Part shown: positions 5,710 through 63,938 of the stretch, piece after piece
How positions within the stretch are numbered: the stretch's first letter is position 1
How the letters are laid out: the number at the start of each line of letters is the position of its first letter
Source of the DNA: Pyropia yezoensis
Taxonomy: Eukaryota > Rhodophyta > Bangiophyceae > Bangiales > Bangiaceae
Assembly (NCBI GenBank): GCA_009829735.1
Contig: CM020620.1
Location: 14,567,420 to 14,631,419, forward strand
Direction of reading: 5' to 3'
Length of the DNA: 64,000 nt
Made by a program: the position numbers and the translations under genes
Notes under the pieces: model-generated
What the model was told of the DNA's origin: nothing
Database searches by the model: none
Seen by the model: the letters and a program-made list of their open reading frames with translations, nothing else

Positions 5710-7158
5710 CTAGGAAGGTGGGCACAGGGGTGCGACGCGATCTCTACGAGGCCCCCCCACGTGAAGGGCCCATAGGGTCCCTACAATCGGCATGGGTACC
5801 GGAGTTCGGACCCGTAGCGAACCCAACCCCACGTCGGGGAAGGGCTCGAGGAAGTGAAAGGGTGGAGCCTGAGTTGGCTCCACACCCCCCGAGGTCAGGG
5901 TCGCGACCCGCGGGGAAGACGTCGGCATGGTTCGCCCGAGGCTCCGAGGGACGCCCCGACGAGCACCACGACGAGTCGTCGCCGATGACGTCGCCCACCC
6001 AGAGCCAGGGGGCGACGTAGAAGGAGTAACCCCCTCCGCGTAAGCAAGAAAAGGGTCCCCCAACCGCTCACGCAGGAGTAGCTGCCCCTGCACCAGAGTT
6101 TGGGTGACATGGACGAAGTCCCGGGGTGGCTCACTCTTCAACTCCGGCTCCGAACGCTTCTTGGAGCGGAGGAAGGGGTCCAACTGCTCCCAATCGATTC
6201 GATTGTGCAGGGTGACCATCCCCTTAAGGAGGAGCGGAGCCAGGTCCCCCGCCCCCAAGGCTAACCAGTGGAAGCCAAGGGTTTCCATACCCTCCACCAG
6301 CGTCGGTGGGAGATGCTATAGGTAACCCCTATGGACTACATCGGAGTACCAGCCCCTCGCCACCACGACCACCAAGTGCGTGGCGAGGTAGGCGAGAACC
6401 CGGTTACCCCCCGAGCCGGAGTGTAACACAGAGCCAAAGTAGGCTACGAGGAGTGGGATCCGAGCCGAAAACCCACAAGGTACCTCCACCCTCTCCCACC
6501 ACCCCGGGAGAAAATGATACTGGTGTTCACGCTCTTCCAGAGGTACGTGGGTGAACTCCACCCACGATCCGTGGATGAGGAAACCAGAGGAGCCCCGGAG
6601 TCGGAACTGCTCTCGCACCACGCCGTGTTGGACGTGGGCGTCCTCTCCTCCCAGGTAGGGACGAGGGGGGGCACACCACTCGGAAGACACCACCGCACAG
6701 GTGTCGTCAATCTCCACGTCGCCTGACCCCATGGCGAGGGAGGTTGACAACGCCTGGACTTCAGGCGCGTCCGCCAGGCAGAGTAGTGCCGGTAGGTCGC
6801 AGACCACCCCCTCAGGAAGTGTCACCTGGTTGGGGTACCGACGAGTCCGGCGGTACCACACGTCGGTCCGCCGTGGCTCAGGAATGACCAAGTAGGTCTC
6901 TTTGAGCTTACAGTCGGAAAGCTCCCCGACTGACTTGAGAGGCGCCCAGGCTGGGGGCTCCACAGGAGGACGGGGCCGCGGCGGGAGTAGCAACCGCGAC
7001 TCCGGAAGGCGGGGAATGGGAGTCACATCCCCTTCCGCCACCGGGTTGGAGGACCCATCACCCGGTGGGACCACAGCCGAAGGAACGGTAGAGGGTGATG
7101 GGGCAGGGACGGCCGAGGCGGCCGCCTCCGACCCCCGCCCGGGACGAGTCGTTTCCAT
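5710..7158 (-). pseudogene. Antisense ORF (aORF) of family E, one in-frame stop
   Basis: ATG at 7158 in good context (gccATGG) opens 280 codons to TAG at 6316-6318; the same frame then continues to 5710. The product has no domain I recognise. It aligns by eye with the antisense ORF of B2. Shared blocks include PRPYL then EFRL-type residues and VEF (B2: RPAYL, LEF), the run GFSARIPLLVAYFGSVL against B2 GVPALLPRLLDHFGSVM, and LLKGMVTLHNRIDWEQL against LLEEMLRLHEFIEWASI. The TAG sits where B2 has Trp. The first ~100 residues are Pro/Ser rich. Function unknown; the last ~100 codons (below about 6030) find no counterpart. Confidence 0.65.
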
Positions 7159-8297
7159 GGCCGACCCCCAGCCCAGAGACTCCTCTGTCCCGAGGGACTC
7201 CTCACCCGCCCGTCGCTTCTACGACAGCGACGTGGGCGAAGGGGACAGCGGCCGACTCGGCTCACCCGCCATCTGGTAACCAACCTTGACCAACTCAGTG
7301 AGGTTGAGCTCTAGAGGGGGGATACGACCCACACTCCCTCGACTAACGCGTCAACGACCTTGACCGACTCGGTGAGGTTGAGCACAGGGGGGATACGACC
7401 CGCTCCCCCTCCTTAGCAACCACCAGGTTGACCCGACCTTGGCTACCCACTCCCCCTCCTTAGCAACCACCAGGTTGACCCGACCTTGGCTAGAGTAAAG
7501 GGGGGGGACACGACCCACACCCCCCACCGACAACGACGACGCCCCACACAGGGGCGGAGAGGGGAAAGACACACCCCCCGAGACGACACTTACCGCACGG
7601 TGGGAAGAGACAGACCCGCCGACGCGAGGGAACAGCGGCGGGAAGACACACACCCGCCCGCACACACGAAGGGGAAGGAAGACCCCGCACCGGCGGCCGG
7701 GAGACACACCACCGCCGGCGACAGAGTGCGACACCCCCAACTCGGGGTGCGCACAACCCTCAACCCTGACTTAAACGGGGGGGGGAGAGAGTAAGAAACA
7801 CCCCGCAGAGAGCCAGCTGCGGGTGGATCGAGATGTAGGGGGGGGTACAACCCGAACCCCCCGAGAGCAACCGTACCCCAACAGAAGGGGCAGGTGCAGG
7901 TCGACGCTCCGAGTGAGAACGTCGACACCCTACTCCTCCAGTTGAGGAGCACGGGTATGTGGCGGAGAGACGCCAACACCCAGGCGAGGGGGCGCACCCA
8001 CACGGGAGTCCACCTGTGGAGCACCCTAAACAGGTGGGGGATGACTTCCCCCCACACCTGTGTCGCGTGGAGGGGGCTCCTCTACCCAGTTTCAGGGCAG
8101 AGAGCGCACCCCACGGAGAGAGACAGCCTCTCCCGGAGGGCTCCGCCGGACGCGAGTGCAACTCCGGCGTAACCCTGGTGCACGCGAGACGCCAGCGATG
8201 CACCGTATTTCGCACCCCGACTCGGGAATTGCACCCTCCTCTCCCGGTCACTGCGACTCGCAGCTGATTGGACGTCCACCGGGACGGCTGGACTTTT
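7159..8297. other. Gene-free stretch between aORF start and polypurine tract (family E)
   Basis: No supported gene. It contains several runs of 7-10 G, repeated phrases such as GGGGGGATACGACCC, and a short tandem repeat listed separately. The right-arm copy is 45353-46491. Open frames here are low-complexity shadows. Confidence 0.5.
7403..7492 (+). repeat. Two-unit tandem repeat, about 45 bp each
   Basis: The phrase CTCCCCCTCCTTAGCAACCA plus the following CCAGGTTGACCCGACCTTGGCT occurs twice back to back. A related GTGAGGTTGAGC...GGGGGGATACGACCC phrase also repeats just before it at 7289-7400. The inverted copy is at about 46158-46247. Confidence 0.8.
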
Positions 8298-44272: not shown

Positions 44273-44428
44273 ATGCTCCTCGCTCGCCGCCTCGCCCCGC
44301 ACGCCTGCCACACCGCGAGGCTGCTGGCCCCTGCCGCAGCGCTCGGCCAATGCCCCTCCTCGGGCGCCACGCCTGCCGGAGCTCCGCCTCTGCCGGCCGG
44401 CCACCGAGTCAGCGCGGCGGGCGCATGA
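44273..44428 (+). CDS. Short ORF with organelle presequence-like N-terminus (right copy)
   Basis: Mirror of 9222-9377. A CATAAAG box about 285 bases upstream (near 43986) could serve it. The in-frame TGA at 44426-44428 is shared by both arms, so it is not a random sequencing error. Confidence 0.25.
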   Translation: MLLARRLAPHACHTARLLAPAAALGQCPSSGATPAGAPPLPAGHRVSAAGA

Positions 44429-44917: not shown

Positions 44918-45339
44918 TGTGGTGAGCGGGTCCACTCACCAAGGCACGAATAAGATGTGTCGGAGCCAGACGGTGTTTACTTGCTTGGCTAGCCAAGGTG
45001 GGCCCTCCCCGCCTTGCTGTCCCTCCTTATCAACCCTTCTCACACGCTCACGCAACCCCTCAAAACACTCAGAAAATGAACACTCAAACAAACCAATCAG
45101 ATCATGCCACACGCAAAGAACTCAAAGCGTAGAAATCCGTCTGGCTCCCGTGCATAAAACCCAAGAAACAAATACCAGCAGCATTGCCCTGCACTAGTAT
45201 GCCAGAAGTCCTAGTCGAATTTCCGTCCAAAAGTCAGAAGTTTTACCATCGTGGGTCGGGTGAATTTCGACTTTCGGTCGGGTCGACTTGACCCGAATCT
45301 CCAAAGTATTGGTACCGAATTCCGATCCAATCTCCCACA
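44918..45339 (-). repeat. Probable LTR of family E (right-arm copy)
   Basis: Mirror of 8311-8732, preceded on the minus strand by the same polypurine tract (45340-45352). Confidence 0.45.
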
Positions 45340-46491
45340 TTTCCCCCTTCTCAAAAGTCCAGCCGTCCCGGTGGACGTCCAATCAGCTGCGAGTCGCAGT
45401 GACCGGGAGAGGAGGGTGCAATTCCCGAGTCGGGGTGCGAAATACGGTGCATCGCTGGCGTCTCGCGTGCACCAGGGTTACGCCGGAGTTGCACTCGCGT
45501 CCGGCGGAGCCCTCCGGGAGAGGCTGTCTCTCTCCGTGGGGTGCGCTCTCTGCCCTGAAACTGGGTAGAGGAGCCCCCTCCACGCGACACAGGTGTGGGG
45601 GGAAGTCATCCCCCACCTGTTTAGGGTGCTCCACAGGTGGACTCCCGTGTGGGTGCGCCCCCTCGCCTGGGTGTTGGCGTCTCTCCGCCACATACCCGTG
45701 CTCCTCAACTGGAGGAGTAGGGTGTCGACGTTCTCACTCGGAGCGTCGACCTGCACCTGCCCCTTCTGTTGGGGTACGGTTGCTCTCGGGGGGTTCGGGT
45801 TGTACCCCCCCCTACATCTCGATCCACCCGCAGCTGGCTCTCTGCGGGGTGTTTCTTACTCTCTCCCCCCCCCGTTTAAGTCAGGGTTGAGGGTTGTGCG
45901 CACCCCGAGTTGGGGGTGTCGCACTCTGTCGCCGGCGGTGGTGTGTCTCCCGGCCGCCGGTGCGGGGTCTTCCTTCCCCTTCGTGTGTGCGGGCGGGTGT
46001 GTGTCTTCCCGCCGCTGTTCCCTCGCGTCGGCGGGTCTGTCTCTTCCCACCGTGCGGTAAGTGTCGTCTCGGGGGGTGTGTCTTTCCCCTCTCCGCCCCT
46101 GTGTGGGGCGTCGTCGTTGTCGGTGGGGGGTGTGGGTCGTGTCCCCCCCCTTTACTCTAGCCAAGGTCGGGTCAACCTGGTGGTTGCTAAGGAGGGGGAG
46201 TGGGTAGCCAAGGTCGGGTCAACCTGGTGGTTGCTAAGGAGGGGGAGCGGGTCGTATCCCCCCTGTGCTCAACCTCACCGAGTCGGTCAAGGTCGTTGAC
46301 GCGTTAGTCGAGGGAGTGTGGGTCGTATCCCCCCTCTAGAGCTCAACCTCACTGAGTTGGTCAAGGTTGGTTACCAGATGGCGGGTGAGCCGAGTCGGCC
46401 GCTGTCCCCTTCGCCCACGTCGCTGTCGTAGAAGCGACGGGCGGGTGAGGAGTCCCTCGGGACAGAGGAGTCTCTTGGCTGGGGGTCGGCC

Positions 46492-47275
46492 ATGGAAACG
46501 ACTCGTCCCGGGCGGGGGTCGGAGGCGGCCGCCTCGGCCGTCCCTGCCCCATCACCCTCTACCGTTCCTTCGGCTGTGGTCCCACCGGATGATGGGTCCT
46601 CCAACCCGGTGGCGGAAGGGGATGTGACCCCCATTCCCCGCCTTCCGGAGTCGCGGTTGCTACTCCCGCCGCGGCCCCGTCCTCCTGTGGAGCCCTCAGC
46701 CTGGGCGCCTCTCAAGTCAGTCGGGGAGCTTCCCGACTGTAAGCTCAAAGAGACCTACTCGGTCATTCCTGAGCCACGGCGGACCGACGTGTGGTACCGC
46801 CGGACTCGTCGGTACCCCAACCAGGTGACTCTACCTGAGGGGGTGGTCTGCGACCTACCGGCACTACTCTGCCTGGCGGACGCGCCTGAAGTCCAGGCGT
46901 TGTCAACCTCCCTCGCCATGGGGTCAGGCGACGTGGAGATTGACGACACCTGTGCGGTGGTGGCTACCGAGTGGTGTGCCCTCCCTCGTCCCTACCTGGG
47001 AGGAGAGGACGCCCACGTCCAACACGGCGTGGTGCGAGAGCAGTTCCGACTCCGGGGCTCCTCTGGTTTCTTCATCCACGGGTCGTGGGTGGAGTTCACC
47101 CACGTACCTCTGGAAGAGCGTGAACACCAGTATCATTTTCTCTCGGGGTGGTGGGAGAGGGTGGAGGTACCTTGTGGGTTTTCGGCTCGGATCCCACTCC
47201 TCGTAGCCTACTTTGGCTCTGTGTTACACTCCGGCTCGGGGGGTAACCGGGTCCTCGCCTACCTCGCCACGCACT
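46492..47275 (+). pseudogene. Antisense ORF of family E, truncated by the arm end (right copy)
   Basis: ATG at 46492 (METTRPGRGSEAAAS). Matches the left copy with a few replacements to 47275, where the sequence switches to a minus-strand family B integrase fragment; the open frame runs on into that foreign sequence to 47331. The homologous C-terminal half is missing. Confidence 0.65.
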
Positions 47276-47281
47276 GGGTGT

Positions 47282-47671
47282 ACCTGCCCATTAGCTTGTG
47301 GGTGGGTGGGGGGTGGCATAGTTTGCCTTGACCCCCAACATATCCAGCACTCCCTGAAACAGTACAGACGCAAATTGCGGTCCATTGTCCGATAGTGTAC
47401 TATCCGGGATGCCATACGCGGCAACCCAGTGATCTAGGAAGGCTGACACGACCGACATGGCCGTGATCTCTGCCAGTGGGATCGCTCGCGAAAGTTTCGT
47501 GAAGCGGTCACAGATGATTAGGAGGTACTGGCTGCCCTCCTCGGTCACTGGCAGTGGCCCAAGGATGTCCATTGCCAACGCGGCAAAGGGCTCCTTGGCC
47601 GGGAACAGTAGCATAGCCGTAGTAGGCCGCCGTTCCATCAGACGGTTCTGCGGACAACTTGTGCAGGCAGC
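47282..47671 (-). pseudogene. pol: Family B integrase core fragment
   Basis: On the minus strand it encodes the integrase from CTSCPQNRLMERRPTTAML through AMDILGPLP and LSDNGPQFASVLF to about NGQV, near identical to the other B copies. It is cut on one side by the LTR at 47672 and on the other by the inverted-duplication junction. It is what remains of a B element that received a second B insertion. Confidence 0.9.
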
Positions 47672-48140
47672 TGTGGCAGTATTGATCCCCAGGTACGGGG
47701 GCAACACGTGCCATGCAAGGGGCGGCAGGCCACTAGCCTGACCCGTTCCTCCCCCTGCATTTGGGTCCGTATTCCCTAAGTTTGGGATAGTTAGCTTAGT
47801 AGTAAGTCCAACTTGGATTTGAGGGTATTCTGCATTTATCGTCTTGAATTTTCGTGTGGCCCGGTGGGCAGGTGCTGGGGTGGGAGATTCTGAGTGGCGA
47901 GATTCTGAGGGGACCCTGGGGGGATAAGGGGAGGGACAGCGGGGCTTGGCCCTGCGTCCCCGTCTCGACCAAGAAACTGTTGGACCACACACCATCCTCT
48001 TGTTTGTCAGTGGGGAGTTTGCCCCACAACAGGGACAGAGTGTGTGCGACTTGCACTTCTTCCGGTTCCCCCGACACGGGAGGCAGCCCTTGCACACCGC
48101 CCCAACTTGGGTGTCGTGTGTGCAAGTGGTTTTTGCCACA
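47672..48140 (+). repeat. Family B 5' LTR, 469 bp
   Basis: Begins TGTGGCAG and ends TTGCCACA, a 7-base inverted pair. Near-identical copies are at 54641-55108 (minus) and 58696-59165 (plus). It is followed after TT by a primer-binding site. The antisense strand carries a Cys-rich open frame (see findings). Confidence 0.9.
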
Positions 48141-48160: not shown

Positions 48161-48259
48161 CAGGGATAAACTTTACCTCCGGGTGCACCCGGGTGTAGGG
48201 GGCCCTCTGTCTCAGAGGAACAGTGGACTTGGACCGTGTCATACGGATCGTCAGCCAAC

Positions 48260-50206
48260 ATGGCTAGTTCGGACCCCCCGTCGTCCGGGGAGTACACGGG
48301 TGACGCACGTACTTCAGTGCCTTTGAATACTGGTGAGACACAGGTGGGTTTACCTGGGGTCGTAGAGGGACTGGAGGTCCCTCAAGCCAGCAGGACTGGA
48401 AGTGCGGGCGGGCAACAGGCCACCCCGACTCAGTCGGGAGTTCACTCGGGTGACACTTCTGATGTGGGTGGGCCGAAGTCTGGCCACCGTGTGGTGTACT
48501 CAACGGGAACGTCCCAAGGGGTGAGGACTGTCCCCGCGGGTTCCACTCGGGTTGGAGCCAACTTTGGCTTGGAGCGGTCGCCAACTAGGCTTTCGGAGGA
48601 CGGCGGACCTCCGTTGGTCAGCGATGGGCGCGCGCCCATGCCCCCGGTTGAGACCCCTGAGGATCGTGGTTACCCCTCAGGTGGACTCCCGGAGGCGGAC
48701 CGAGACTCAACTGGAGTCGTCAATCCACTCCTCGCGGAAACTGTCCGTCGGGAGGCGACCAATGTGTTGCGGCAGACTTTGCCGGACCTGGTGGTCACGA
48801 TGACGAATACTATTCTGAATCAGATTGTGGCGAGTTTGCCAGATGGCCTTATTGTCCAGACCGGATCGGGGCTTTCGAGCCCGCAGGCGCAGGGGGGATT
48901 CCCCCTCACGCCTATCTTGGGTCGCCCCAAACAGGGGGCGGCACCTGTGATTCCCAACGAGGGAGCCACACCATACTCGGTGGGGCATACGCCCTTCATG
49001 GGGGAGCTCCCCCCGGCAACGCCGGCGGCTACACCAAGCGCGCCGCGCCGGACTACAGGCACTGAGGGTGAACTTACCCCAGGGCCACAGCGGCTGTTCC
49101 CTCAACGTGAGGTGCCGCCCCAGATCCAGGTAGCCAACCCGGTCTACCAGAGGATCTTTGATTGTGAGACCTACGCCCTCCACAACAAGTCGGTGGCGTA
49201 TGGTCCTGACCAGGCCCGAGCCATGGGCCGTGCCAAGAAGAATGCACTTCACTCTTTTGGGCACAAAGCGGAGTGGGATGGAACTCCCCCCCTCCGAGTC
49301 TTTGAGTTCCTACGTCGTTTCACAAAAGCCTGTGACGACAATGCCATAAGTGAAGGCATGGCTTTTTACATGCTACAGGAGTTTACGAAAGGCGACCTGC
49401 GGACAGAACTTATGTCCGTCATGCCCAGCTCCTCAAGTGGAGGCGCTGGAGAGGTGACGTCCTACCTGGAGCTCGTCAACTGGTTGTTGAGGGCCATGGT
49501 TGATGAAGCGGCGTTGGCTTCTCAAGTCGAGGAGTTTACGCAAGCCCATCAGGAAGAGGCGGAGGACGAGTTGTCCTTTGCGGAGCGAGTCCGTAAGCTC
49601 AACAATCTTTGTGGGTTTCTTCATCCACAAGCTGTGGTGAAGAGTCGGTTTGTGGAGGGACTCCATTGGTCAGTCCGGATGGAGACCCGGGAGCATAATA
49701 CTGCCCGGGCGACCCTGGCCGAGTTGGCCAGGTTCGCCTACCGCAGAGGCGAGGCCTACCGCAAGTTGCGGGCGGAACAACGCCAGGAGCGTCAAGCCGA
49801 GTTGGCCAAGGAACGGGAGGAGGCGCGCCAGGCCAGAGAGTTGAGAGAGGCACGCCGAATCCGCAAGGAGAGGGTGGTAGCTGCCGTGGGAACTTCCCAG
49901 GGTATCTCTTCGTCTTCCCCAGTTGGGAAGACCCCTCCGGGAACTGACAATCGGTGTTGGAACTGCAACTCCGATGGACACTGGGCATATGATTGCCCCA
50001 AGTTGAGTAAACGCATCCAACAACTTGTTAGGAATGCGAGTAAGAAGTCGGTTACGAACAAAGCACGTTCACGCCGCGAGAGTGGGTCTCGACCGGTGGT
50101 GGCGGTCGCCACACCCTCGACGAAGGGGGCGGACACGTCGTCCTCGGACTCGTCGTCTTCCCCTTCGTCCTCAGATTCGGACGCCAAGTCGGCGGGAAAC
50201 GAATGA
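48260..50206 (+). CDS. gag: Family B gag, intact
   Basis: 648 codons from ATG 48260 (MASSDPPSSGEY); the upstream GTG-started extension is not needed. The N-terminal ~270 residues are Thr/Ser/Pro/Gly rich. The capsid region follows, with DCETYALHNKSVAYG, WDGTPPLRVFEFLRRF, LVNWLLRAMVDEA and NNLCGFLHPQAVVKSRFVEG. A charged helix (ELAKEREEARQARELREAR) precedes the CCHC knuckle CWNCNSDGHWAYDC. The end is a Ser-rich tail. Gag makes the virus-like particle of the element. The stop TGA overlaps the pol start as ATGA. Confidence 0.92.
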   Translation: MASSDPPSSGEYTGDARTSVPLNTGETQVGLPGVVEGLEVPQASRTGSAGGQQATPTQSGVHSGDTSDVGGPKSGHRVVYSTGTSQGVRTVPAGSTRVGANFGLERSPTRLSEDGGPPLVSDGRAPMPPVETPEDRGYPSGGLPEADRDSTGVVNPLLAETVRREATNVLRQTLPDLVVTMTNTILNQIVASLPDGLIVQTGSGLSSPQAQGGFPLTPILGRPKQGAAPVIPNEGATPYSVGHTPFMGELPPATPAATPSAPRRTTGTEGELTPGPQRLFPQREVPPQIQVANPVYQRIFDCETYALHNKSVAYGPDQARAMGRAKKNALHSFGHKAEWDGTPPLRVFEFLRRFTKACDDNAISEGMAFYMLQEFTKGDLRTELMSVMPSSSSGGAGEVTSYLELVNWLLRAMVDEAALASQVEEFTQAHQEEAEDELSFAERVRKLNNLCGFLHPQAVVKSRFVEGLHWSVRMETREHNTARATLAELARFAYRRGEAYRKLRAEQRQERQAELAKEREEARQARELREARRIRKERVVAAVGTSQGISSSSPVGKTPPGTDNRCWNCNSDGHWAYDCPKLSKRIQQLVRNASKKSVTNKARSRRESGSRPVVAVATPSTKGADTSSSDSSSSPSSSDSDAKSAGNE

Positions 50207-53200
50207 CCGTTGGAGCTGGTCGTCCGAAGCTCACAACGGCAGCCTCGGCCAAGTGGGCCAAGAGGACGAATCAACCGTGCCGGATACTGCGGCGACCTAA
50301 GGGAGTCCGCCCACCTCGGGTAGGACTCCCCAAGAACGTAAACCCACGTCGGGTCATCGCGGTGCTGACGGGTGAGAACTTCCAGGTGGCTGGACGGGTG
50401 CAACTTGCCCCCGGCCGCGCCTGTTGTGCCCGTATCGTACTTGGTACCGGGTCAGGAGCCTCCTTGATACGCAAGTCGCTATTACCAAAGGAGATGAAGC
50501 TCCAACGCTGGAAGTCTAAAGCTGACCATCTGATCGATATCAATGGTGGGGTACTTCCCATTGTTGGTGCCGTGACCCTACCAACTAGGTTGGGGACCCA
50601 TGAAGTCGACGTGACCTATGGTGTAGTTGGGAATATATCGGTATCCCTGCTTTTGGGTACCCCTTATGTCGTAACACAAGTGCCTTTGATTTGTGGCCCT
50701 GAGTATTGGGTCAAGTTGATGAATGGGGAGACTATCCCCATCCTTGGTAAGGGAAAGTCTGTGACTCCTGTGACAGTCTCACAGTCGAAGCCTGTTTGCT
50801 CTGTGAGGGAAGGGTTTACTGCTACCCTGCGTTTAGCCCGTAAAGTCACGTTGCCCCCCAACTCGGTGGCGCACGTTGACGTTGTAACTGATTATACGGG
50901 GAACGGGTTGGTGCACCTCTACCCCCGCCTTGCTCGCAAGCACCAAGTGCATGTTGCCCTTGGCACGATGGGCTCCAAGGCTGGAGTCCCGTGGAGGATC
51001 CAGGTTACGAACCTGAGCTCGTCGCCCAAGTACTTCAAGTCGGGAGCCAAGTTCGGCTATATCGACCAACATGAGGGACCGGTAGTAGCGGCCACCCTCA
51101 ACGCGGGCGCAAGTAGCGACCCGAAGTTCGGGAAGGAGAAGCATCAAGCCAAGTCGGTCGCCTCTCCTCGGCCCCAAGTGAACATGGAGGGTGTTCCACC
51201 CAGGTTGAGGGTTCAAATTGAACGCCTCTTGGACCGATATCACAAGTTGTGGGATAGTCAATTGGGACTCATGAGAGCCACTCAACACCGGATCGAGTTG
51301 AAGCCCGGTGCACCCCCTGTACGCCAACAACCGTATAGGGGAGGACCCCGTTCAAGTGCCCTCGTTAAGGAGCAAGTCGCTCGCATGGAGGCCCTCGATG
51401 TGATCGAGGCCAGCAACGCCGAGTGGGCGAGTCCGGTGGTTATCGTCCCTAAAGTTGATGGGACCCCCCGGTTCTGTATCGACTACCGTAAGCTCAACGA
51501 GAGCACGGTGAAGGACAGTTATCCCCTACCTAGGATGGACGACTGTCTGGACTCTCCTGGGGAGGCAAACGTGTTCTCTACCCTGGACTGTAACGCAGGG
51601 TACTGGCAAACTCCCATTGCCCCGGAAGACAGGCATAAAACTACCTTTACCTGTCACTGTGGTACCTACCAGTGCAAGCGTCTACCGTTTGGCCTGTGTA
51701 ACGCGCCGGCAACTTTCCAGCGCGCTATGGACATGATTCTGGCCGGAGTACGGTGGCAGATCTGTCTCGTGTACCTAGACGATATCATTGTGTTCTCCCG
51801 AAGTCCGGAGGAACACATTGGCCATCTTGGCCAGGTGTTCAAGCTACTTGCTGACGCCGGTGTGTCACTGAAGGCGAGTAAGTGCCACCTCTTCACTCAA
51901 GAGGTGGAATACTTGGGACATGCTGTCCGTCCGGGGCGTCTCAGTGTCAACGAGAAAAACTTGAGGGCCATCCGTAAGGCTCAGTACCCCCGGACCCAGA
52001 CCCAGATGAGGAGCTTCCTCGGGATGTGTAACGTGTACCGACGTTTCACCCAGGGCTTCGCCAAGGTGGCGAAACCGTTGAATGAGTTAGTGAGCTCAAC
52101 GCTACCGAAGAACCTGCCTCCCCCAAGTCGGGTGGAGCAGGAATCCTTTGAAACTCTTCGGGACCTTCTGCTGAAGCCCCCCATCTTGGCTATTCCCAGG
52201 TTGGGAGGCCACTACATCCTGGATGTGGACGCTAGCTACGACCAACTTGGTTGTGTGTTGCTTCAGCAGCAGCCGGACAAGGAGTACTTGCCGGTGGGAT
52301 ACTTCAGCAAGGGGCTGAACTCGGCCGAGAAGAACTACGGAGTCACCGAGTTGGAAGGACTCGCAGTGGTGTGGGCGGTGACGTCACTTCGTCACTACCT
52401 AGAGGATGAGAAGTTCCTCATCCGCTGTGACCACCGCGCATTGCAGTTCATCTTCAAGACGGACTGTACGAACACTCGTCTCAACCGGTGGAGGGTGCGA
52501 CTGGCACCCTTCAACTTTGATATTGAGTACCGACCTGGCAGGCAACATGCCCTTGCCGACGGCCTCTCTCGGGTACCTACCGAGGGGCTGGACACTAACC
52601 CAGTCGATGAGGACATCCCCATCGTGGGGGTAGTCACGCGCTCGGGTCAGGCGTTGAACCCCGAGGCGCCAGGGAACAAGAAGTACTTGCCCCTGTCCCT
52701 GGACGAGGTGGTGAAGGCCCAGGCCGAGGATCCCTTCTGCAAGTCGCAGAGGGATACACTGGATACAGTGGCGGAGACGCGGTTCTTTCTGGGAGACGAT
52801 GGCCTCCTCATGAGGAGGGGGGTATTCCAGGGGACCGAACAACTTGTCGTCCCCGCATCCCTCAAGGACAGTATCCTTGAGAGGGAGCACAATGCTCCCA
52901 CGGGTGGACACCTGGGGTCTAGTAAACTGTACCAGACCCTGAGGACCAGGTACTACTGGCCGTCCATGGTAGTGGACATCTACAGTTGGGTGGCTGCCTG
53001 CACAAGTTATGCACAGAACCGTCTGATGGATCGGCGGCCTACTACGGCTATGCTACTGTTCCCGGCCAAGGAGCCCTTCGCCGCGTTGGCCATGGACATC
53101 CTTGGGCCACTGCCAGTGACCGAGGAGGGCAACCAGTACCTCCTGGTCATCTGTGACCGCTTCACGAAACTTTCGCGAGCGATCCCACTGGCAGAGATCA

Positions 53201-53427
53201 CGGCCATGTCGGTCGTGTCAGCCTTCCTAGATCACTGGGTTGCCGCGTATGGCATTCCGGAGAGTACACTATCGGACAATGGACCGCAATTTGCGTCTGT
53301 ACTGTTTCAGGGAGTGCTGGATATGTTGGGGGTTAAGGCAAACTATGCCACCCCCTACCACCCACAAATTAATGGGCAGGTGGAGCGCTCAACAAAACTA
53401 TTGTTCGGCAGCTGCGCCACTATGTGA
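50203..53427 (+). pseudogene. pol: Family B pol: protease-like, reverse transcriptase, RNase H, integrase; frameshifted near its 3' end
   Basis: 1074 codons from ATG 50203. The protease motif is LGTGSGASLIRKSLLP, with Gly in place of the catalytic Asp (GGT 50443-50445). RT is complete, with ASPVVIVPKVDGTPRFCIDYRKLN and VYLDDIIVFS (about residues 522-531). RNase H follows (DVDASYDQLGCVLLQQ, TELEGLAVVWAV, RCDHRALQF), then integrase with HNAPTGGH, CTSY where other copies have CTSC (zinc Cys lost by TGT to TAT), and the core acids in AMDILG, LSDNGPQF and GQVERS. A one-base loss near 53389 then shifts the frame. The gag-pol overlap ATGA suggests reinitiation or a -1 shift. Confidence 0.9.
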
Positions 53428-55108: not shown

Positions 55109-55498
55109 GCTGCCTGCACAAGTTGTCCGCAGAACCGTCTGATGGAACGGCGGCCTACTACGGCTATGCTACTGTTCCCGGCCAAGGAGCCCTTCGCCGC
55201 GTTGGCAATGGACATCCTTGGGCCACTGCCAGTGACCGAGGAGGGCAACCAGTACCTCCTGGTCATCTGTGACCGCTTCACGAAACTTTCGCGAGCGATC
55301 CCACTGGCAGAGATCACGGCCATGTCGGTCGTGTCAGCCTTCCTAGATCACTGGGTTGCCGCGTATGGCATCCCGGATAGTACACTATCGGACAATGGAC
55401 CGCAATTTGCGTCTGTACTGTTTCAGGGAGTGCTGGATATGTTGGGGGTTAAGGCAAACTATGCCACCCCCCACCCACCCACAAACTAATGGGCTGGT
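54286..55498 (-). repeat. Right arm of the 1.2-kb inverted repeat
   Basis: Reverse complement of 47282-48495. Its far side continues as a longer B2 element, so the duplicated structure (B inserted head-on in a B integrase) is the same in both arms. Confidence 0.9.
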
Positions 55499-56303
55499 GG
55501 AGCGCTTCAGCAAAACTATTGATCGGCGGCTGCGCCACTATGTGAGTGAGCACGTGAAAACGTGGGACCAATACATTTCTATTCTTACCACTGCCTACAA
55601 TTCGCAGGTTCACTCATCTACCGGGGAAGTACCCCTCGCTTTCGTGACCCCCCGCCGCGTGCGGTCTATTGCCGTGCGGCGGCCGATCCCAACTAGGGAG
55701 GATGGTGGCAGTACGCCCACTCCTACTGAGAGTAAGGCGGAGTTCGCTGCTAGGCTTGAAAACCTCATCCTTAAAGTCAGGGCTAAGATGGACAAAGCAC
55801 AAGAGCGCTACAAGCGTACCTTTGACAAAAAGGTGCGCCATGCGAAGCATGTCCCCGAGCAGGGTGACTGGGTGCTGGTACACTCACACACCCCAACTGG
55901 GGGTAAGTTGGTATTCCAGACGAAGGGGCCGTACCAGGTCCTTCGTACTGATGGGCGGCGCTTCACCATCGAAAGTGACAATGGGGTCCGCACAGTGAAC
56001 GGACAGGACGTGGTCAAAGTTGCACCACCGCCTGCAGGCGACCCAGCTTGGGCGCGTGCGTTGGAAGCGTGGCGCCTGCCCTCGCTGCCTGCGGCTAAAC
56101 ATGGCCCGCAGGAGTACGTGTTCGATAAGCTCATCGACCACGGCTGGGATGAGGACACTAACCGCCTCATGTTGAGGGTGCGTTGGTTTGGCTACAAAGC
56201 CAAGGATGATACGTGGGAGTATGTGGAGGACCTTCCCGCTGAGAAGGTCCGGGCGTACTGTGCCCGGAATGAGATAGACCCTAACAGCCCTCCCTCAACG
56301 TGA
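55109..56303 (+). pseudogene. pol: B2 integrase core, C-terminus and chromodomain, one frameshift
   Basis: Starts at ACTSCPQNRLMERRP and has AMDILGPLP, LSDNGPQFASVLF. One extra C near 55475 shifts the frame, and a CAG to CTG change follows; the rest (VERFSKTIDRRLRHYVSEHV to the chromodomain WFGYKAKDDTWEYVEDLPAE) is in the next frame, ending 56303. Very similar to the other copy at 53389-54185. Confidence 0.9.
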
Positions 56304-56432
56304 GGGAAGGCCGAGCAACAGTGCCAAGAGAGTGCTTCAAGTCGAAGTGGTACGCAGAGTGGCTTTTAACTACAGCCCTATCCCTCACACTCTCACAACA
56401 AAGGCAGCTGCGAACTAGGCATGCATGCTAGA

Positions 56433-58357
56433 CTATCCAACCCCACGGCGCTCGCCCTCACGAGGAGGCGAGCGGCGAGACCCACGTCGATAAAGCTCCC
56501 CACCAGTCGGCGGGGCCGGCGGCTCCAAGTCGGAACCGTCGCGCCCCTCACGGTCGCGCAAGTGGCTGCGACCGCGGCTGCTCTTCTGCTTAGTCTTGCG
56601 CGCAAGTTGGCGACGCAGACGCCGGACCGACTCCGACTCTGACTGAGTAGAGGACTCCGAGACGGAGTAAGACAACTCGTCTTCCGACACGGAGGGAGAG
56701 CGCCATGAGCGTCGGCGACGACGGCGAGGAGGCGAGTATGCCCGGCTCGCACGACGTTTGCCACGCCCAAGTGGGGCTGGCTGGGGCATAATAGCCCCGA
56801 TGCGAGCCAACTCGGCCGTCATAAACTCCGCCACCGACTCGCAACTCGCGGTCGCCACTGCAGTACGAACGCGCTCCTCAAGATGAGGAGTCTCGGAAGT
56901 TTGAAGGGTTGCGGTCGACGCGGCCAACCAGGAGATGGTGCGCACCAATGTGGTGATCATCATCTCTGAGGTCAGAGGCGTGGCCGGTTACACCAACTTG
57001 GGGTAAACCGTCAGAAGGGTGGCCCCCAAGTTGGGGGACACCGGGGTGGACGACTCAACGGCCACGCTAATCGGAATGTCCCCGTGCGGCTGGTAGGGGA
57101 CAGGAGGAAGCGGAGGGGCACGCCGAGGTGGCGGTGCCCGGGTGTAACTGCGACCCCTACTCGGGGCCCCCGCAGTGGGTTGAGTCATGTGGTCATCATG
57201 AGAAGGCACGGCCATCCCTATGGGCTTGTCCGGGGGTGGCGCAGTGTGGCGATCCACCCCCGGGCATACGGGTAGTCCCCGATGCCCAACCCCTCTCGTA
57301 GTACCACACGGCCGTCGTAACGTTCACGAGCGACCCATGCGAACTGGCGAAGTGCGCCATCGTCCTTGGGCCCACGAGTGGGGCGGCGCAACTTGTGCTC
57401 AATGCTCGCCCACTCGATAAACTCGTGGAGGCGGAGCATCTCCTCAAGTAGAGTGAGTTGTCCTGATGAGCACCCCTCAGCAACTAGCTGAGGCGTGAGC
57501 TGTTCCAAACCTTGGATAAGCCGGAGGGGATGATGCCAGAGCATCCCCCGCCGCCGGACACAGGACACCCAGGTCGACATGACCTCGAGGAGCCACTGGG
57601 TGGCCAACATGGCCCACACCAGGTGATCTGGGCTAGCCGTCAACATGACGGAGCCGAAGTGGTCGAGCAACCGTGGCAGCAACGCAGGGACCCCGTAGGG
57701 GACCTCATCTTGAGGCCATTACTCGGGCTTCTTCGGGTAGTACTGCTCCTTACTGGCAGCGGACTGCTGCGGAAACTCAAGTTGAGCCGAGGTCATCAAA
57801 TAGGGACCTCGCCGGAAGTCCTTCTCCATCCGCACATCAAAGTGATGAGTGTGCGGATCGGCCTCGTGAAGGTACGCGGGGCGAGTTGCCACCGCGTCCC
57901 AAGTGAAGGTCGGCAAGTCGCCGGGACCCGGGATAGTTCCCCCGCGGTCCACCATGGCCTTGGCCCGCTGTACGTCTTCGACCTCCTCATCGTCCAGGAA
58001 GACAAACTGGTCCGTCCTGAAGCCGGCAGGGAACCCGACCCTACGGGGATACTTCTCCCGTAGGCGGTCCCATACCCAACCCATCGCTGTGCCAAGTCGG
58101 CCACGGCGAAGAACAGTCAACCCCTCCTCATACAGAGGCCAAGCGGGGTAAAACCACCACCCCAAGGCCTCACGCGGGACAACGTGTCCCGCCTCCGGGG
58201 GAGATCCCGCCGTCAACCCAAAGCCGGGTGACACGGGAGTCCCATCCCCAGGAGTAACCGCGGAGCCCCCGCCGGAAGTCCCGGCGGGCGCTGCACCGTA
58301 GGAGGTGTCCTCCATACGTTCGTCAAGGGAGTCCGTCTCCACCCCCGGGGTCGCCAT
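56433..58357 (-). pseudogene. Antisense ORF (aORF) of B2
   Basis: ATG at 58357 in context gccATGGc reads MATPGVETDSLDERMED. The frame has one in-frame TAA (57719-57721) and continues to 57218. Blocks shared with families E and D include DEEVEDVQRAKAM, ARPAYL, GVPALLPRLLDHFGSVM, RLIQGLEQLTPQLV, LLEEMLRLHEFIEWA and ALRQFAWVARERYDG. A second frame (57257-56988, one stop, then 56963-56433) adds a Pro-rich and then Arg/Ser-rich basic tail (RRRRRRSWRSPSVSEDE, TKQKSSRGRS). The TAA lies where family E has Trp. No known domain; function unknown. The strand is opposite to gag-pol of the same element. Confidence 0.7.
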
Positions 58358-58682
58358 GGCTCTCCCCAAGTTGGGGAGAGACGTTCTGGCTACAGCGGCA
58401 CGAGACCCGCCTCGAGTTGAGGGGGGCTCGGATCGTGGGTAGATGGGTGGCCTCCCCAGCGTGGGGCGGCCAAGGGGAAGGTGAAGGGGATGTGGTGGTG
58501 GTGGGTAAGTGAGAACCGGGGAGAGCAAGCTGCCGAGTGGGCAAGCTTGAGGAGAGGGGCGGTCAACGTGACCGTCTCCACATCCGCGTTACGTACTCGA
58601 GGGGGGACAGCAAGTCGCGCCCCCAACGCCAAGACGTGCGTTTACGCACCCCCTCACAGGGCCGACCGGGTCGGTCGGAACT

Positions 58683-58695
58683 GAGGAGAGGGGAG
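58683..58695 (+). promoter_or_regulatory. Polypurine tract of B2
   Basis: GAGGAGAGGGGAG immediately before the LTR start TGTGCCAG. This fixes the 3' boundary of the internal region and shows that the antisense ORF lies inside the element. Confidence 0.85.
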
Positions 58696-59165
58696 TGTGC
58701 CAGTATTGACCCCCAGGTAAGGGGGCAACACGTGCCATGCAAGGGGCGGCAGGCCACTAGCCTGATCCGTTCCTCCCCCTGCATTTGGGTCCATATTCCC
58801 TAAGTTTGGGATAGTTAGCTTAGTAGTAAATCCAACTTGGATTTGAGGGTTTTCTGCATTTATCGTCTTGAATTTTCGTGTGGCCCGGTGGGCAGGTGCT
58901 GGGGTGGGAGATTCTGAGTGGCGAGATGCTGAGGGGACCCTGGGGGGATAAGGGGAGGGACAGCGGGGCTTGGCCCTGCGTCCCCGTCTCGACCAAGAAA
59001 CTGTTGGACCACACACCATCCTCTTGTTTGTCAGTGGGGGGTTTGCCCCACAACAGGGACAGAGTGTGTGCGACTTGCACTTCTTCCGGTTCCCCCGACA
59101 CGGGAGGCAGCCCTTGTACACCGCCCCAACTTGGGTGTCGCGTGTGCGAGTGGGTATTTGCCACA
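58696..59165 (+). repeat. Family B 3' LTR of B2, 470 bp
   Basis: TGTGCCAG...TTTGCCACA; near-identical to 47672-48140 with a few substitutions (for example GGTACGG against GGTAAGG). Preceded by a polypurine tract, followed by family D pol. Confidence 0.9.
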
Positions 59166-60154
59166 TTAGGCAAGCGGAGCCGCCGAAGACCAAGAGGGGC
59201 CTGCGCAGCTTCCTAGGCAAGTGTAGTGTCTATCGAAGGTTTGTGAAAGACTACGCGGAGGTGGCTCAGCCTTTGTCGGTCCTGACCAGTACAAAAGGCG
59301 CCGACCCGCTGCCCGAGTTTACGAAGGAGCAGCTGAGTGCCTTCGAGGACCCCAAGTGGAGGCTGACCCACACACCCATTCCGGCCCTCACGCGACGACA
59401 GGGGCAGTACACGGTCGATGCGGACGCCAGTGCTACCCAAGTTGGCTGTGTTCAACTCCAAGAGCAGCCAGAGGGTGGTCTCAAACCCGTTGGGTACTGG
59501 AGTGGACCCCTGTCGCAAGCCGAGGGCAACTACAGTACCACCGAGCGCGAATGTCTGGCCGTAGTGTGGGCCCTCTTCCTGTTGCGGCCCTACCTTTTGG
59601 GCACACCTTTCATCGTAAGGACGGACCATGCAGCCCTCAAGTGGATGCTCCACATGGACGGAGCACATGGCCGGTTGGCCCAGTGGCGGCTACGGTTGGC
59701 CGAGTTCGACTACATTGTGAAGACACGGGCCAGCGCGGCCCACCACGCAGCTGATACCATGTCAAGGCTCAAGACGACGAGGGTCGACAATAGGCCCATC
59801 CCGGAGGAAGTCCCCTGTCTACTTACGTTGGCCAACTTTGCTCGTGGCGGGGTGGCCCCCGATCCTAACACGAACAAGGGCTTCCCTCCTCTCACTGTGG
59901 AACGTCTGATAAGGTTCCAATCGACGGACGCACGCTGCATCGAGATCCGAGCCGAGATGAATAACAATACCCACTCAAGGTTTGGGGAGACTCCCGACGG
60001 CTTACTCGTGCAGTTGAGTCCCATTGACAAGGCCGTTCAAGTGTATGCGCCCGAGCGCCTACGCCAAGAGGTCATAACGTTGGAGCACGACCCGGCCCAC
60101 GCTGGCCACCCGGGCGTGAATAAGATGTACACCTCCATGCGGCGGGCCTACTGA
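59166..60154 (+). pseudogene. pol: Family D RT end, RNase H and integrase zinc region
   Basis: The frame enters from the B2 LTR. RT thumb: RGLRSFLGKCSVYRRFV. RNase H with its acidic set: DADASATQVGCVQLQEQ, TERECLAVVWALFLL, RTDHAALKWML, ADTMSRL. Integrase starts with HDPAHAGHPGVNKMYTSMRRAY and meets TGA at 60152-60154, exactly where the other families have Trp (YYWP). A second TGA follows in frame at 60176-60178, and CNAC supplies the zinc Cys pair in the same frame. Confidence 0.85.
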
Positions 60155-60192
60155 GATTCTATGGTGGCCGATGGCTGAAACTTTGAGGCCAA

Positions 60193-61335
60193 TTGCAACG
60201 CCTGTACCAAGGGAAGGTGAGGGGCCGAAGACGGACCGCACCCCTCCGCCTATTTCCGGCGTCTGAGCCCTTCACGGACATATGCTTGGCCTTGCTCGGC
60301 CCCTTCCCAGTGTCGGCCAGCGGTAATCGAATCCTGTTGGTCATCGTCGACCGCTTCTCCAAGTTGAATGGCGTGGTCCCAACCCCGAGGGAGGACGCAG
60401 AAACGGTGGCCTCGGCGTTTTGTGACACGTGGGTGGCCTCTTACGGCCCACCGGACACCCTCTTGACCGACAATGGGCCACAGCTAACCTCCGCCTACTT
60501 CCGCGGATTTTGTGGGATGCTGGGTATCCTCCACCTCACCTCGACGACCTACCACCCGCAGACGCATGGCCAGGTGGAGCGCTACAACCGGACCATGGTG
60601 GCGCAGTTGAAGGCCTACGTGTTGGAACATCAAGAGTCGTGGGATGAACTAGTCTCTGTCCTTACGTTGGCCTACAACTCACGGCCGCAGAAGAGTACGG
60701 GTGTGGCCCCCCTCGAGTTTGTCGTACCAGAGCGGGTCCGCGACCTCTCTCTCGAGCGAATGCCGGCCACGCCCTACCTCAAGGAAGTAGTCAAGACGGC
60801 CAGGGTGGCCCACGAGTATCATCGGGCCCACCGACGCAATCTGGTCCATTGGGTACGCAAGGCTTTGGCGTCCGCCCAACGAAGGTACAAGCGGCCCTAC
60901 GACAAACGGGTTAGGCGGGTGAACAAGACCCTCCGGGTGGGGGATTGGGCCTACATCGACGCCAACATCCAGAACCCCAAGAAGCCGGACGAGATGGTTC
61001 TGGGGCCCTACCAGATTGCGGGACGCGACGACCACACCTCCACGGTCATGATGGATGGCCATCCGGAACGGGTTAGTGGGGATAACGTGGCCCGCGCCCC
61101 TACCCCCAAGCACCAAGCGGACTCTTCGACCATCGTTCGTGGGCCGCAGGGCGTGGCGGTGCTGTAGGACCATCGGGGGACGGGCCACCAATTTATCTGG
61201 GAGCGCTTCGTGGACCACGCCTGTGACGTGGAAAGCAAGTTGTGGCTGCTTGTACGCTGGTGGGGCTACTCGGCGGAGGAGGACACTTGAGAGCCGCAAG
61301 ATGGCCTGGACAAGCGCAAGGTGACCGAGTACTGT
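60193..61335 (+). pseudogene. pol: Family D integrase core, C-terminus and chromodomain
   Basis: After a one-base shift near 60215: LRLFPASEPFTDICLALLGPFP, in which the first catalytic Asp (MDxLGP in B) is Ala (GCC), then LTDNGPQLTSAYF and HGQVERYN with the other two acids. The C-terminal domain has RYKRPYDKRVRRVNKTLRVG. TAG at 61165-61167 is followed in frame by a chromodomain (FIWERFVDHACDVESKLWLL, RWWGYSAEEDT) with TGA at 61288-61290, where the motif normally has Trp (DTWEP). Confidence 0.8.
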
Positions 61336-61536
61336 CGCAGAGTGAGCGTCTCTGTGCCCCCACCGTCGGCCGATGTGAGCGCTGTGGGGCCCCCTCCAAG
61401 ACCTTTGAGATCCGGACGTAGAGCTGGAGGAGGAGCCTGTGGCGGACGACTATGTGGGCCTGGTGAAGGCGCTCACGCTGGATCAGGACCCTCGGTGGGC
61501 CTGATGTGCCTCCTCCCGTTTCGGCCTGGTCACCTC

Positions 61537-61600
61537 TTGCTAAGCTGGCTTCGCGTCCCAAACCCGATGGTCATGGGTTCAAGCCTACCCGGGCGACACC
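61537..61600 (+). other. tRNA-like A and B boxes, possible tRNA relic or SINE promoter
   Basis: TTGCTAAGCTGG (61537-61548) resembles an A box and GGGTTCAAGCC (61575-61585) a B box at about tRNA spacing. The acceptor stem does not pair, so it is not a functional tRNA. Confidence 0.2.
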
Positions 61601-61857
61601 CATTATCTAAGGGGACATTATCGGTAACACGAGTCAGGCCGGGGAAAATATTTGTCCGGAAGACGGGAGTAGGCTAGTTTCAACCACGTCGCCGTGGTCG
61701 CGACCATCCCCTTCTCGGATGGCGCCTCGAACACGGATTCATCACAAAGCAGAGCAGAGGAGCCACCCCATTCAATGGATAGGCGGCAACAGAGAGACTA
61801 TGCTACATATACGCAAACGGTCTACTCTACGGACTTTCCTTCTGCTACCCGACACCC

Positions 61858-63938
61858 CTATTGGTCACGAGGACGGCCGTTCCTGTTCCATGGGCCTGCC
61901 TCCTCGTCACCCTCACGGCCACGTACCCGGTATGCAAAGTTCGACTGCCGACGGCCGTACTCCCGCTGGGCCGCCGTCTCCGTCAATCCCACCTCCCGAT
62001 GAATAGACTTCCGAATGGCAGGCAGGCCCACAAGGTCCAACAACTGCTGCAGCTCGTGGATGGGCGGGCCCCCCTGACAAGAGGCCCACCTACCAACCTC
62101 GACGCCCACGTCAGTCAACACGTGAAACAGACCCGCGATCAACGGACCCACACGGACCGAGCCAGAGGCAGCCCCCGATTGCCCGAGAAGTGGAGCCAAG
62201 CCCTGACTCACTTGCTCAGAGATCCGGCCATCAAGAGACGACAGGACCTCGTCCGGAACGTCGCGGTGGGCCATCGGGGACGCCATCAGCATACGTGGGG
62301 CCGACGAGGAGGGTACGACGGCCGGCGGCGGGAAAGGCGGACCGGCAGCGGCGGGATTAGCGGGCGGGTTGGCCATTATCTCTTCCTCTTGGTCCCTCGC
62401 CAATTCTCGGGCCTCCATCTCGTCCCAACTGTACCGCAGCGGGGAGCAAAGTCCTCATCCTTGTAAGCCGTCGCGGACTCCGCATCTCGCTCGATGCGAG
62501 TAGCAACCCAAGAGCCCCGGTGCCGCCAAGTCTTGTCCTCCGACTGAAGGCGGTCTGAGAAGGCCATCGTATGTGGAAGATGGTCGAGAAGCGCCAGCAT
62601 GGCCCCAAACTCTGCTCCGGCTACCATGTCGACAACGCCGGGGCCCACACGAACCGTCTCAAGTCCCACGCGGAGGATCCACTGCCCGAGTGGACGAGAG
62701 CAGAGCCATTGTCGGCGGGACTTGTGGTACTCATCTACCAAGTAGGCACCGGCAAGGTCGGCCCACTCCGACCGAAAGACGTTCCACACCCAAGCGTTGT
62801 TGGCGAACAGGAGCTCCTAGAAGTAGGTCAACGACGGGGGCATTTCCACCATAGCGCCTTAAGGGACTCCAACCGCCGACAACCAAGGGGGCACTCGTGG
62901 GTAGTGGGCCGCCCAAATGGTAACCGAGCAAGAGGGGAACTAGTCCTCATACCAACCTACGAAGAGCCCGCTGGTCTTAGTGCGGTGGAACCGGTGGGCC
63001 GTCACGAGCTGATGCGGAGGCCGAAACCCAGAGCGGCCGATGAAGGGGGTGTCCATCACCACGTACTTGGCCAACGGGGAGGGGGGCATCTGGGCCATCA
63101 CGACCGTCGCCAACAGCGACTTGGCCGCCTTGGTGTAGCCAATCTCCGCTTCATGACGCACCACCCTGATGGCCTCGCTACGATTGTCGGCCCCCGGGAC
63201 GTAGGCGTCCTTCAAGGCCATCATCTGCTTGCGGAACGAGTTCCCGTGACTGCCACCGTCAACGGCCAACATGGTTCGGTGGGCCAACGTTGAGGTAGTC
63301 CACTCGCGACCGCGCTCCCGCTCCCACGCTTGGGCCCATCCCGCCATGTCGTGCTCGTCGGCCGGTAGGGCACCCACCGCCGACTCGTACGGGACCGCCT
63401 CCTGCCCCTCCTCCGTCACCGGGCCCTCCATGTCGGCGTGAAGGCCCACAAAAAGAAGGTGGGCGACGTCGGCCAAGCACCTGACGAGGAGATAGCCGAC
63501 AACGAGGTGACTGGGGCAGCGGGGCGCTAACCAGACGTTTGACATGGGAGAAGAGAACAGAGGGGGAGTTTCCCCCTGGAGGTTTGGTTGGCCGACGAAG
63601 ACGCCCAAAAGACCCACAACCCTCCTGCCGATGGCCTTCTTATCCCTGGTACCTTGTCCTTCACCTCCCCCCTCCTTGTGGCCTTCGCTTCCCTTCTGCA
63701 CGATTAGTGTGGCCCTTGCGTACACCCCTGTAGCTAGCGGAAGGCCCACCGCCACGTCAGAGCCCCCATCGCGTGGAGCTGAGACTACGTGGGCCGAACG
63801 ACACGCAACGGCCCGCCCGGTCCGCGTCATGGCTGGTCGTGGATGGCCACCCTCTCCTCCTTCCCTCCCCTCACTGTCTCTCGAGGCCCCTGGACCTGTC
63901 CTATGTGTGCGGCCGGCGGGGACGCTTGGCCTTGGCAA
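61858..63938 (-). pseudogene. Antisense ORF (aORF) of family D
   Basis: The frames 63938-62940 and 62789-62376 are one reading frame separated by TAG (62940-62942), TAA and TAG; a third frame (62418-61858) overlaps it. Alignment by eye to B2: WADLAGAYLVDEYHKSRRQW and ILRVGLETVRVGP against HLVWAMLATQ and RLIQGLEQLTP; LALLDHLPHTMAF against EEMLRLHEFIEW; RGSWVATRIERD against FAWVARERYDG. The similarity is weaker than between B2 and E. N-terminal start uncertain. Function unknown. Confidence 0.55.

What the first reader, a model, noticed from the sequence alone, without database searches (positions are those of the whole stretch)
55109..63938. Ty3/gypsy elements with a conserved protein-coding ORF on the antisense strand between chromodomain and 3' LTR
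Seen: in B2 the order is chromodomain (stop 56303), minus-strand ORF (58357 down to 56433), polypurine tract GAGGAGAGGGGAG, LTR at 58696, so the antisense ORF is inside the element. Family D has the same order (chromodomain to about 61335, minus-strand ORF 63938-61858), and family E shows antisense ORF, PPT and LTR at 5710-8732. The three antisense proteins align over several blocks, while their DNA is strongly diverged, which implies past selection on the protein. Known: antisense extra ORFs occur near the 3' end of some plant Tat-lineage gypsy elements; I know of no description for elements like these. Inference: an accessory protein expressed from an antisense promoter in or near the 3' LTR.
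Basis: partly seen in the sequence, partly recalled or inferred. Interest (0 to 1): 0.85.

Follow-up and report, generated by a model that had tools for sequence, protein, structure and literature searches.

The report
Backwards accessory gene in seaweed retrotransposons
Jumping genetic elements in a genome that appears to be that of the nori seaweed carry, on the opposite DNA strand just before their end repeat, a protein gene without a known relative that natural selection has kept, although some closely related copies have lost it.

Summary
Scaffold sizes match Pyropia yezoensis. Elsewhere in this genome open copies carry an antisense ORF (aORF) of 546-647 aa between chromodomain and polypurine tract. 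In the copies whose ends were read (four B, one E, one D-like), LTRs are 99.4-100% identical with 5-bp target duplications, so the aORF lies inside the mobile unit. The three aORF groups are homologous (profile E about 6e-8 to 1e-12; no shuffled decoy hit), with dN/dS 0.11-0.60 in 15 of 16 pairs. Between D-like families the aORF shares pol's high dS but has about 3-7 times its dN/dS. No Pfam or credible PDB match; a D-like profile found nothing in viral or prokaryote collections; no membrane segment by hydropathy. Of 21 D-like pol-open copies, 11 have no listed aORF; of 10 read, 7 keep only its N-terminal start and 1 only its C-terminal part, so it was lost there rather than gained. Best reading: a trans-acting regulatory accessory protein, dispensable in cis, working like plant Retand/Grande antisense ORFs but failing their membership tests. 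Expression is untested.

The parts
47672..48140 (+). 5' LTR of the rearranged B copy
   Evidence: 95.5% to the 469-bp LTR of another genome copy
48170..50206 (+). gag ORF with CCHC zinc knuckle (B)
   Evidence: PF00098, E 1.2e-05
50044..53427 (+). pol ORF: RT, RNase H, integrase (B)
   Evidence: PF00078, PF17917, PF17921, PF00665
54641..55108 (-). inverted B LTR inside the rearranged copy
   Evidence: 94.5% to the B LTR
55347..56303 (+). second integrase end plus chromodomain (B)
   Evidence: PF00385 26.7 bits against cut-off 25.1
56418..58357 (-). antisense accessory ORF, family B, decayed in this copy (TAA at 57719-57721, frame change near 57257-57293)
   Evidence: 93.7% and 87.3% aa identity, in two pieces, to the open copy L003
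58685..58695 (+). polypurine tract (GGAGAGGGGAG), directly before the 3' LTR
   Evidence: same tract before the 3' LTR of other copies
58696..59165 (+). 3' LTR (B)
   Evidence: 95.8% to the B LTR of another copy
59165..61167 (+). D-family pol fragments (RNase H, integrase)
   Evidence: PF17917, PF00665; tblastn
61891..63431 (-). antisense accessory ORF, family D, decayed
   Evidence: 82.7% aa to L010 and 39.9% to L035; profile hit E 1.3e-38 for its first piece
5782..7272 (-). antisense accessory ORF, family E, with TAG at 6316-6318
   Evidence: 88% aa to the open copy L034
8311..8845 (+). 3' LTR of the E fragment, preceded by a purine tract (gagaagggggaaa)
   Evidence: 95.0% to the E LTR of a TSD-flanked copy
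46378..47322 (+). second E antisense-ORF fragment, in the right arm of the large inverted duplication
   Evidence: 86.7% aa to L034

Best explanation
Chromodomain-bearing Ty3/gypsy elements of this red alga carry a true antisense accessory gene between the chromodomain and the 3' polypurine tract. Shown: it is inside the transposing unit of the copies whose ends were read, is homologous in three element groups, is under purifying selection in the antisense frame, has about 3-7 times the dN/dS of pol, and its core is missing from some pol-open copies, three of which are 98.5-98.7% alike and so multiplied recently. Inferred: an antisense transcript starting in the 3' LTR or in the leader next to it makes a soluble, probably nuclear protein that acts in trans on the expression, integration or silencing of the family, so that copies without the core can still spread.
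For: Inside the mobile unit: LTR pairs, PPT and 5-bp TSDs at copies that hold chromodomain and aORF. Geometry: 22 of 69 B pol places have a listed aORF downstream, 22 of 22 on the opposite strand, 21 at 2232-2233 bases and the window copy at 4349; 20 of the other 47 were sampled and 20 of 20 have it on the opposite strand: 12 open, 4 with N, 4 shifted or stopped over 212 codons. In the full-length B search 56 of 69 scored matches (best of 3614 candidates) have no stop in 642 codons. Homology and selection. Similar dS but higher dN/dS than pol. No membrane segment by hydropathy, R-rich tail in B. Loss with remnants in pol-open copies. Parallel: the plant Grande antisense protein GENE23 is nuclear and has its own promoter (PMC7264820, parts 1-2 of 3 read).
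Against: No expression data. The arginine-rich tail is seen in B only; of the other five proteins scanned, L038 has one KRRK and four have no such motif. No domain match gives an activity. Trans action is inferred only from copies without the core; these could simply not need the protein. The wobble-sharing sense frame also has dN/dS below 1 in 15 of 16 pairs. The structure prediction failed (mean pLDDT 31.6).
Confidence: 0.55

Rival explanations
1. The antisense ORF is an accident of GC-rich DNA or a shadow of a sense-strand gene.
For: GC-rich DNA gives long spurious ORFs; the element-sense frame that shares the wobble position has dN/dS 0.21-0.63 in 15 of 16 pairs, and in L035/L042 it is lower than the aORF frame (0.37 against 0.42); in the decayed pair L010/window D two other frames are lower (0.43 and 0.67 against 0.92).
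Against: In 12 loci (chosen for an open aORF frame) every other frame has 3-24 stops. Profiles link the groups at E about 6e-8 to 1e-12 among 477 targets; 0 of 240 shuffles and no window ORF outside aORF regions were hit. The aORF frame has the lowest dN/dS in 14 of 16 pairs.
Confidence: 0.02
2. It is an independent insertion (a captured host gene or nested element) that reached some elements only.
For: 54 of 106 D-like pol places have no listed aORF; 2 of 10 such copies read show no remnant.
Against: 7 of these 10 keep about the first 65-75 codons and 1 keeps the C-terminal part, so the gene was there before. It has dS similar to pol between families, and 20 of 20 sampled B copies have it. 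A single ancient capture before these families split is not excluded.
Confidence: 0.08
3. It is an envelope-like or particle-surface protein for spread between cells.
For: The place between pol and 3' LTR is where env-like genes lie; the protein evolves faster than pol.
Against: Antisense orientation; highest 19-residue hydropathy mean 0.98-1.38 in 7 of 7 proteins; no Pfam match at E up to 10 in 16 of 16 rows, four of them partial.
Confidence: 0.05
4. The antisense RNA (double strand formation, silencing) is the functional product and the protein is a by-product.
For: Antisense transcripts of elements can feed siRNA pathways (discussed in PMC7264820, part 2).
Against: Selection is on amino acids: dN/dS 0.11-0.60 in 15 of 16 pairs, and protein homology persists where most of the aORF DNA no longer aligns.
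Confidence: 0.07
5. It is a minor structural component of the particle, made in trans from an antisense mRNA.
For: Fast evolution and supply in trans would fit.
Against: No capsid or other domain match; arginine-rich tail in B.
Confidence: 0.13

Closest known systems
Antisense ORFs (aORF-3R / eORF-3'R) of plant Tat-lineage Ty3/gypsy elements: Retand, Grande (GENE23), RIRE2
   Same: [quoted passage not shown] tandem repeats can occupy the same region (PMC11963269 passages; here L093).
   Different: Retand is a non-chromovirus lineage found in eudicots and Liliopsida, and 97% of its clusters have antisense ORFs with the TRP28 domain (PF04195) (PMC11963269, passages). Here the elements bear chromodomains, the host is a red alga, and PF04195 has no match in the genome at E 10 (no plant positive control was shown).
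Boty of Botrytis cinerea and Sclerotinia (antisense ORF, named in PMC7264820)
   Same: Antisense ORF between pol and 3' LTR outside plants.
   Different: Its protein was not compared here.
HTLV-1 HBZ and other antisense retroviral regulators (named in PMC11963269)
   Same: Antisense gene in the retroviral genome, nuclear product.
   Different: Analogy only; no direct sequence comparison was made.

Membership tests
Ty3/gypsy elements with chromodomain (chromoviruses) | RT-RNase H-integrase order with a chromodomain after integrase | tested here: met
   Pfam on window B ORFs (the window copy is rearranged); tblastn of the INT/chromodomain region matches after pol in L033, L034 and L035
Ty3/gypsy elements with chromodomain (chromoviruses) | LTRs with TG...CA ends, PBS, PPT, short TSD | tested here: met
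   six copies with both ends read; the tRNA for the PBS was not identified
Ty3/gypsy elements with chromodomain (chromoviruses) | RT phylogeny inside the chromovirus clade | not tested
   no tree was built
Plant Tat/Retand antisense aORF | Antisense ORF between pol and 3' LTR | tested here: met
Plant Tat/Retand antisense aORF | TRP28 / Transposase_28 domain (PF04195) | tested here: not met
   0 matches at E 10 in the genome; 0 Pfam families in 16 of 16 aORF rows, four of them partial. A kinship too remote for these scans is not excluded
Plant Tat/Retand antisense aORF | Element belongs to a non-chromovirus lineage | tested here: not met
   chromodomain present
Plant Tat/Retand antisense aORF | Own antisense promoter, nuclear protein (as for Grande GENE23) | not testable with these tools
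   no RNA or localisation data
Env-like genes | Transmembrane segment | tested here: not met
   highest 19-residue Kyte-Doolittle mean 0.98-1.38 in 7 proteins; hydropathy only

The most novel reading that the evidence does not exclude
The antisense protein is a shared, trans-acting control factor of a new protein family. In at least two D-like lineages, element forms with the gene and forms without its core have existed side by side since before or soon after those lineages split, with pol and LTRs kept alike by recombination. This would be a long-lived helper/cheater (or controller/escapee) pair inside one retrotransposon family.
Probability: 0.2. Interest if true: 0.75.

Novelty: new variant of a known kind. 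Interest (0 to 1): 0.55.

Why it matters
The antisense accessory genes of LTR retrotransposons in the papers seen are mostly from flowering plants, and their function is open. A further protein family, in chromodomain-bearing elements of a red alga, suggests that such genes arose or persisted more widely. Here selection is measurable, and near-identical sister forms with and without the gene coexist in one genome, so what such a gene does for its element can be tested by comparing expression and spread of the two forms.

Tried and rejected
Chance ORF or sense-gene shadow: rejected. Transposase_28 kinship: 0 matches at E 10. Pfam scan of 16 aORF rows (four partial) at E 10: 0 families. PDB profile search: the best hits, E 0.029 to 0.11, are to peptide chain release factor 1 and were judged chance. 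Relatives in IMG/VR contigs and in GTDB genomes were sought with the D-like alignment only: none confirmed; B and E were not scanned there. AlphaFold2 on three aligned window pieces: mean pLDDT 31.6, not used, and no fold search was made. Idea that aORFs were swapped between backbones, because the 3' noncoding DNA is so alike: rejected for the coding part, since aORF dS is similar to pol dS. L034 first looked like a 1.3-kb LTR pair; it lies next to a second E aORF copy and has a 500-N gap, so another E copy was used. Literature: searches, judged by titles and starts of abstracts, listed no paper on antisense ORFs in red algal elements; one search listed one paper, on a brown alga. The library holds open-licence papers only. 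Other Bangiales genomes were not on hand.

Counts to read with care: the genome search scores only the best candidates, so a missing listed match is not proof of absence. In one search, 12 of the 103 rows (second fragments of places already in) were left out and 7 places were added.

Full report
HOST. The window is C3:14567420-14631419 of an assembly of 107.5 Mb in 11 contigs, with large contigs of 43.59, 34.33 and 29.39 Mb. The Pyropia yezoensis genome paper (PMC7423979, passages seen) gives three scaffolds of 43.6, 34.3 and 29.4 Mb, 65% GC, and LTR retrotransposons as the predominant repeats. I take the host to be this red alga (nori); no marker gene was compared.

WHAT IS IN THE WINDOW. Gag (CCHC), RT, RNase H, integrase and chromodomain are on the plus strand. 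Antisense coding similarity lies at 58357-56418 (B), 63431-61891 (D) and 7272-5782 (E), with a second E fragment at 46378-47322 in the other arm of a large inverted duplication. All are decayed: B has a TAA at 57719-57721 and a frame change near 57257-57293, and E has a TAG at 6316-6318; D is broken. The B copy is rearranged: the integrase/chromodomain end occurs twice, with an inverted LTR between.

INSIDE THE ELEMENT. Searching the genome with the open N-terminal piece of B gave 150 scored matches from 1712 candidates, most in a 724-codon open frame. With a B protein of 642 aa, 56 of 69 scored matches (3614 candidates) have no stop. B pol gave 69 scored matches (5630 candidates), none with a stop in the matched 642 codons, most in a 1380-codon frame. 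Of these 69 pol places, 22 have an aORF of the list within 6 kb downstream; 22 of 22 are on the opposite strand, 21 at 2232-2233 bases, and the window copy is the exception at 4349. Of the remaining 47, I fetched 20 at the predicted place: 20 of 20 hold the aORF on the opposite strand; 12 are open over 212 codons, 4 contain N, 4 are shifted or stopped. Twenty-seven were not looked at. End pieces of four B copies show LTRs of 468-469 bp (TGTGGCAGTA...TTTTGCCACA), identities 99.4-100%, the PPT gaggagaggggag directly before the 3' LTR, and 5-bp TSDs CTGAG, GTTGT, GTTCC and GTCCC. An E copy has 539-bp LTRs at 100% and TSD CAGCG. A D-like copy (L041) has 634-bp LTRs at 99.5% and TSD GGCAG. The aORF therefore moves with the element, and these copies inserted recently.

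IT IS A GENE. Twelve loci were chosen for a long open antisense frame; in them the five other frames have 3-24 stops each. Pairwise dN/dS (Nei-Gojobori, approximate at high dS) is 0.11-0.60 in 15 of 16 pairs; the exception, 0.92, is a pair of decayed D copies. The aORF frame has the lowest ratio of the six frames in 14 of 16 pairs; the exceptions are L035/L042 (0.42 against 0.37 in the wobble-sharing sense frame) and the decayed pair. In a test with 477 targets, a profile of D-like proteins finds B and E proteins at E 1e-10 to 6e-8 and a profile of B and E finds five D-like proteins at E 1e-12 to 2e-8; the short window pieces of B and D were not found by the other group's profile as given, though a later part of the window B ORF was found weakly (E 0.0019). 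None of 240 shuffles was hit, and of 225 window ORFs only those in aORF regions. The conserved block includes EF...Y...P.W...VEVP.G.

RATE. Between D-like families pol (RNase H-integrase part only) has dS 1.0-2.6 and dN/dS 0.07-0.11 in 11 finite inter-family pairs; 2 more were saturated. For the 5 pairs that can be compared directly the aORF has dS 1.0-1.7 and dN/dS 0.24-0.46, 2.7 to 6.6 times the pol value of the same pair. The gene has been inherited along with pol, and its protein changes faster.

NOT EVERYWHERE. Of 106 scored D-like pol places (4618 candidates), 52 have a listed aORF within 4.5 kb, all on the opposite strand; among 21 with a pol frame of at least 1390 codons without stop, 10 have it and 11 do not. 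An earlier pairing with a weaker query gave 51 of 106 and left 45 of 98 aORF places without a listed pol. I read 10 of the 11 (C1:40728188 was not fetched). Seven (L090, L091, L094, L100; L095, L096, L097) keep only about the first 65-75 codons of the gene, followed by other DNA; one (L098) keeps only the C-terminal part; two (L093, L099) show no remnant. L091 and L100 are 98.7% and 98.5% identical to L090, so the form without the core has multiplied recently. The end point near codon 65-75 is shared by copies of two lineages, and L090 and L095 are 82.7% alike over 1.5 kb that includes pol end and the replacing DNA. An old shared deletion kept in both lineages is the simplest reading; it is not proven.

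WHAT THE PROTEIN MAY DO. No Pfam family at E 10 in 16 rows, no credible PDB match, no PF04195 in the genome; a D-like alignment found no relative in IMG/VR or GTDB. There is no membrane segment by hydropathy in 7 proteins; the two B proteins have an arginine- and serine-rich tail. The structure prediction on window pieces failed. I therefore infer, without direct evidence, a soluble regulator acting in trans, made from an antisense transcript.

COMPARISON. [quoted passage not shown] In Retand, 97% of clusters have antisense ORFs with the TRP28 domain; the lineage is a non-chromovirus one (PMC11963269, passages). A survey of green plants reports extra ORFs in most OTA elements and says that extra-ORF proteins are highly heterogeneous (PMC6317226, passages); whether its chromoviruses have antisense ones I did not see. 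The present gene fits the kind by position and strand but fails the TRP28 and lineage criteria. I call it a new variant of a known kind.

Noticed in passing
window 6370-47280: A large inverted duplication: arms about 6370-23181 and 31877-47280, mostly 99-100% complementary; a recent palindromic duplication or an assembly artefact.
   Followed up: no
L035:7950-8400 against L038, L047, L041: LTRs of D-like families are 94-98% identical to L038/L047 in three 150-base windows (69-95% to L041) although coding dS between the same families is 1 or more: LTR exchange between families or unusual constraint.
   Followed up: partly
window 58640-58695, 8270-8310; L041 before its 3' LTR: By eye, a short GC-rich inverted repeat (core CGGGWCG) lies just before the PPT in B, E and D-like elements; the energy fold shows it in B, E, L038 and L010 but not in L035, L037, L042, L045 and L047.
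   Followed up: partly
L093:1624-2138: A pol-open D-like element without a detectable aORF has 54- and 33-base tandem repeats in the same region, as reported for plant Retand elements.
   Followed up: partly
window 11235-13554: A tandem duplication with copies 1415-1422 bases apart, 92-100% identical.
   Followed up: no
L033 pol frame: The pol frame of this copy is cut by three in-frame stops while its 724-codon antisense frame is open.
   Followed up: no
L048, L089, L088 after the 5' LTR: B and D-like copies share a primer-binding-like stretch TGGTGGAGCAGCAGGGG and E a close one; the tRNA was not identified.
   Followed up: no
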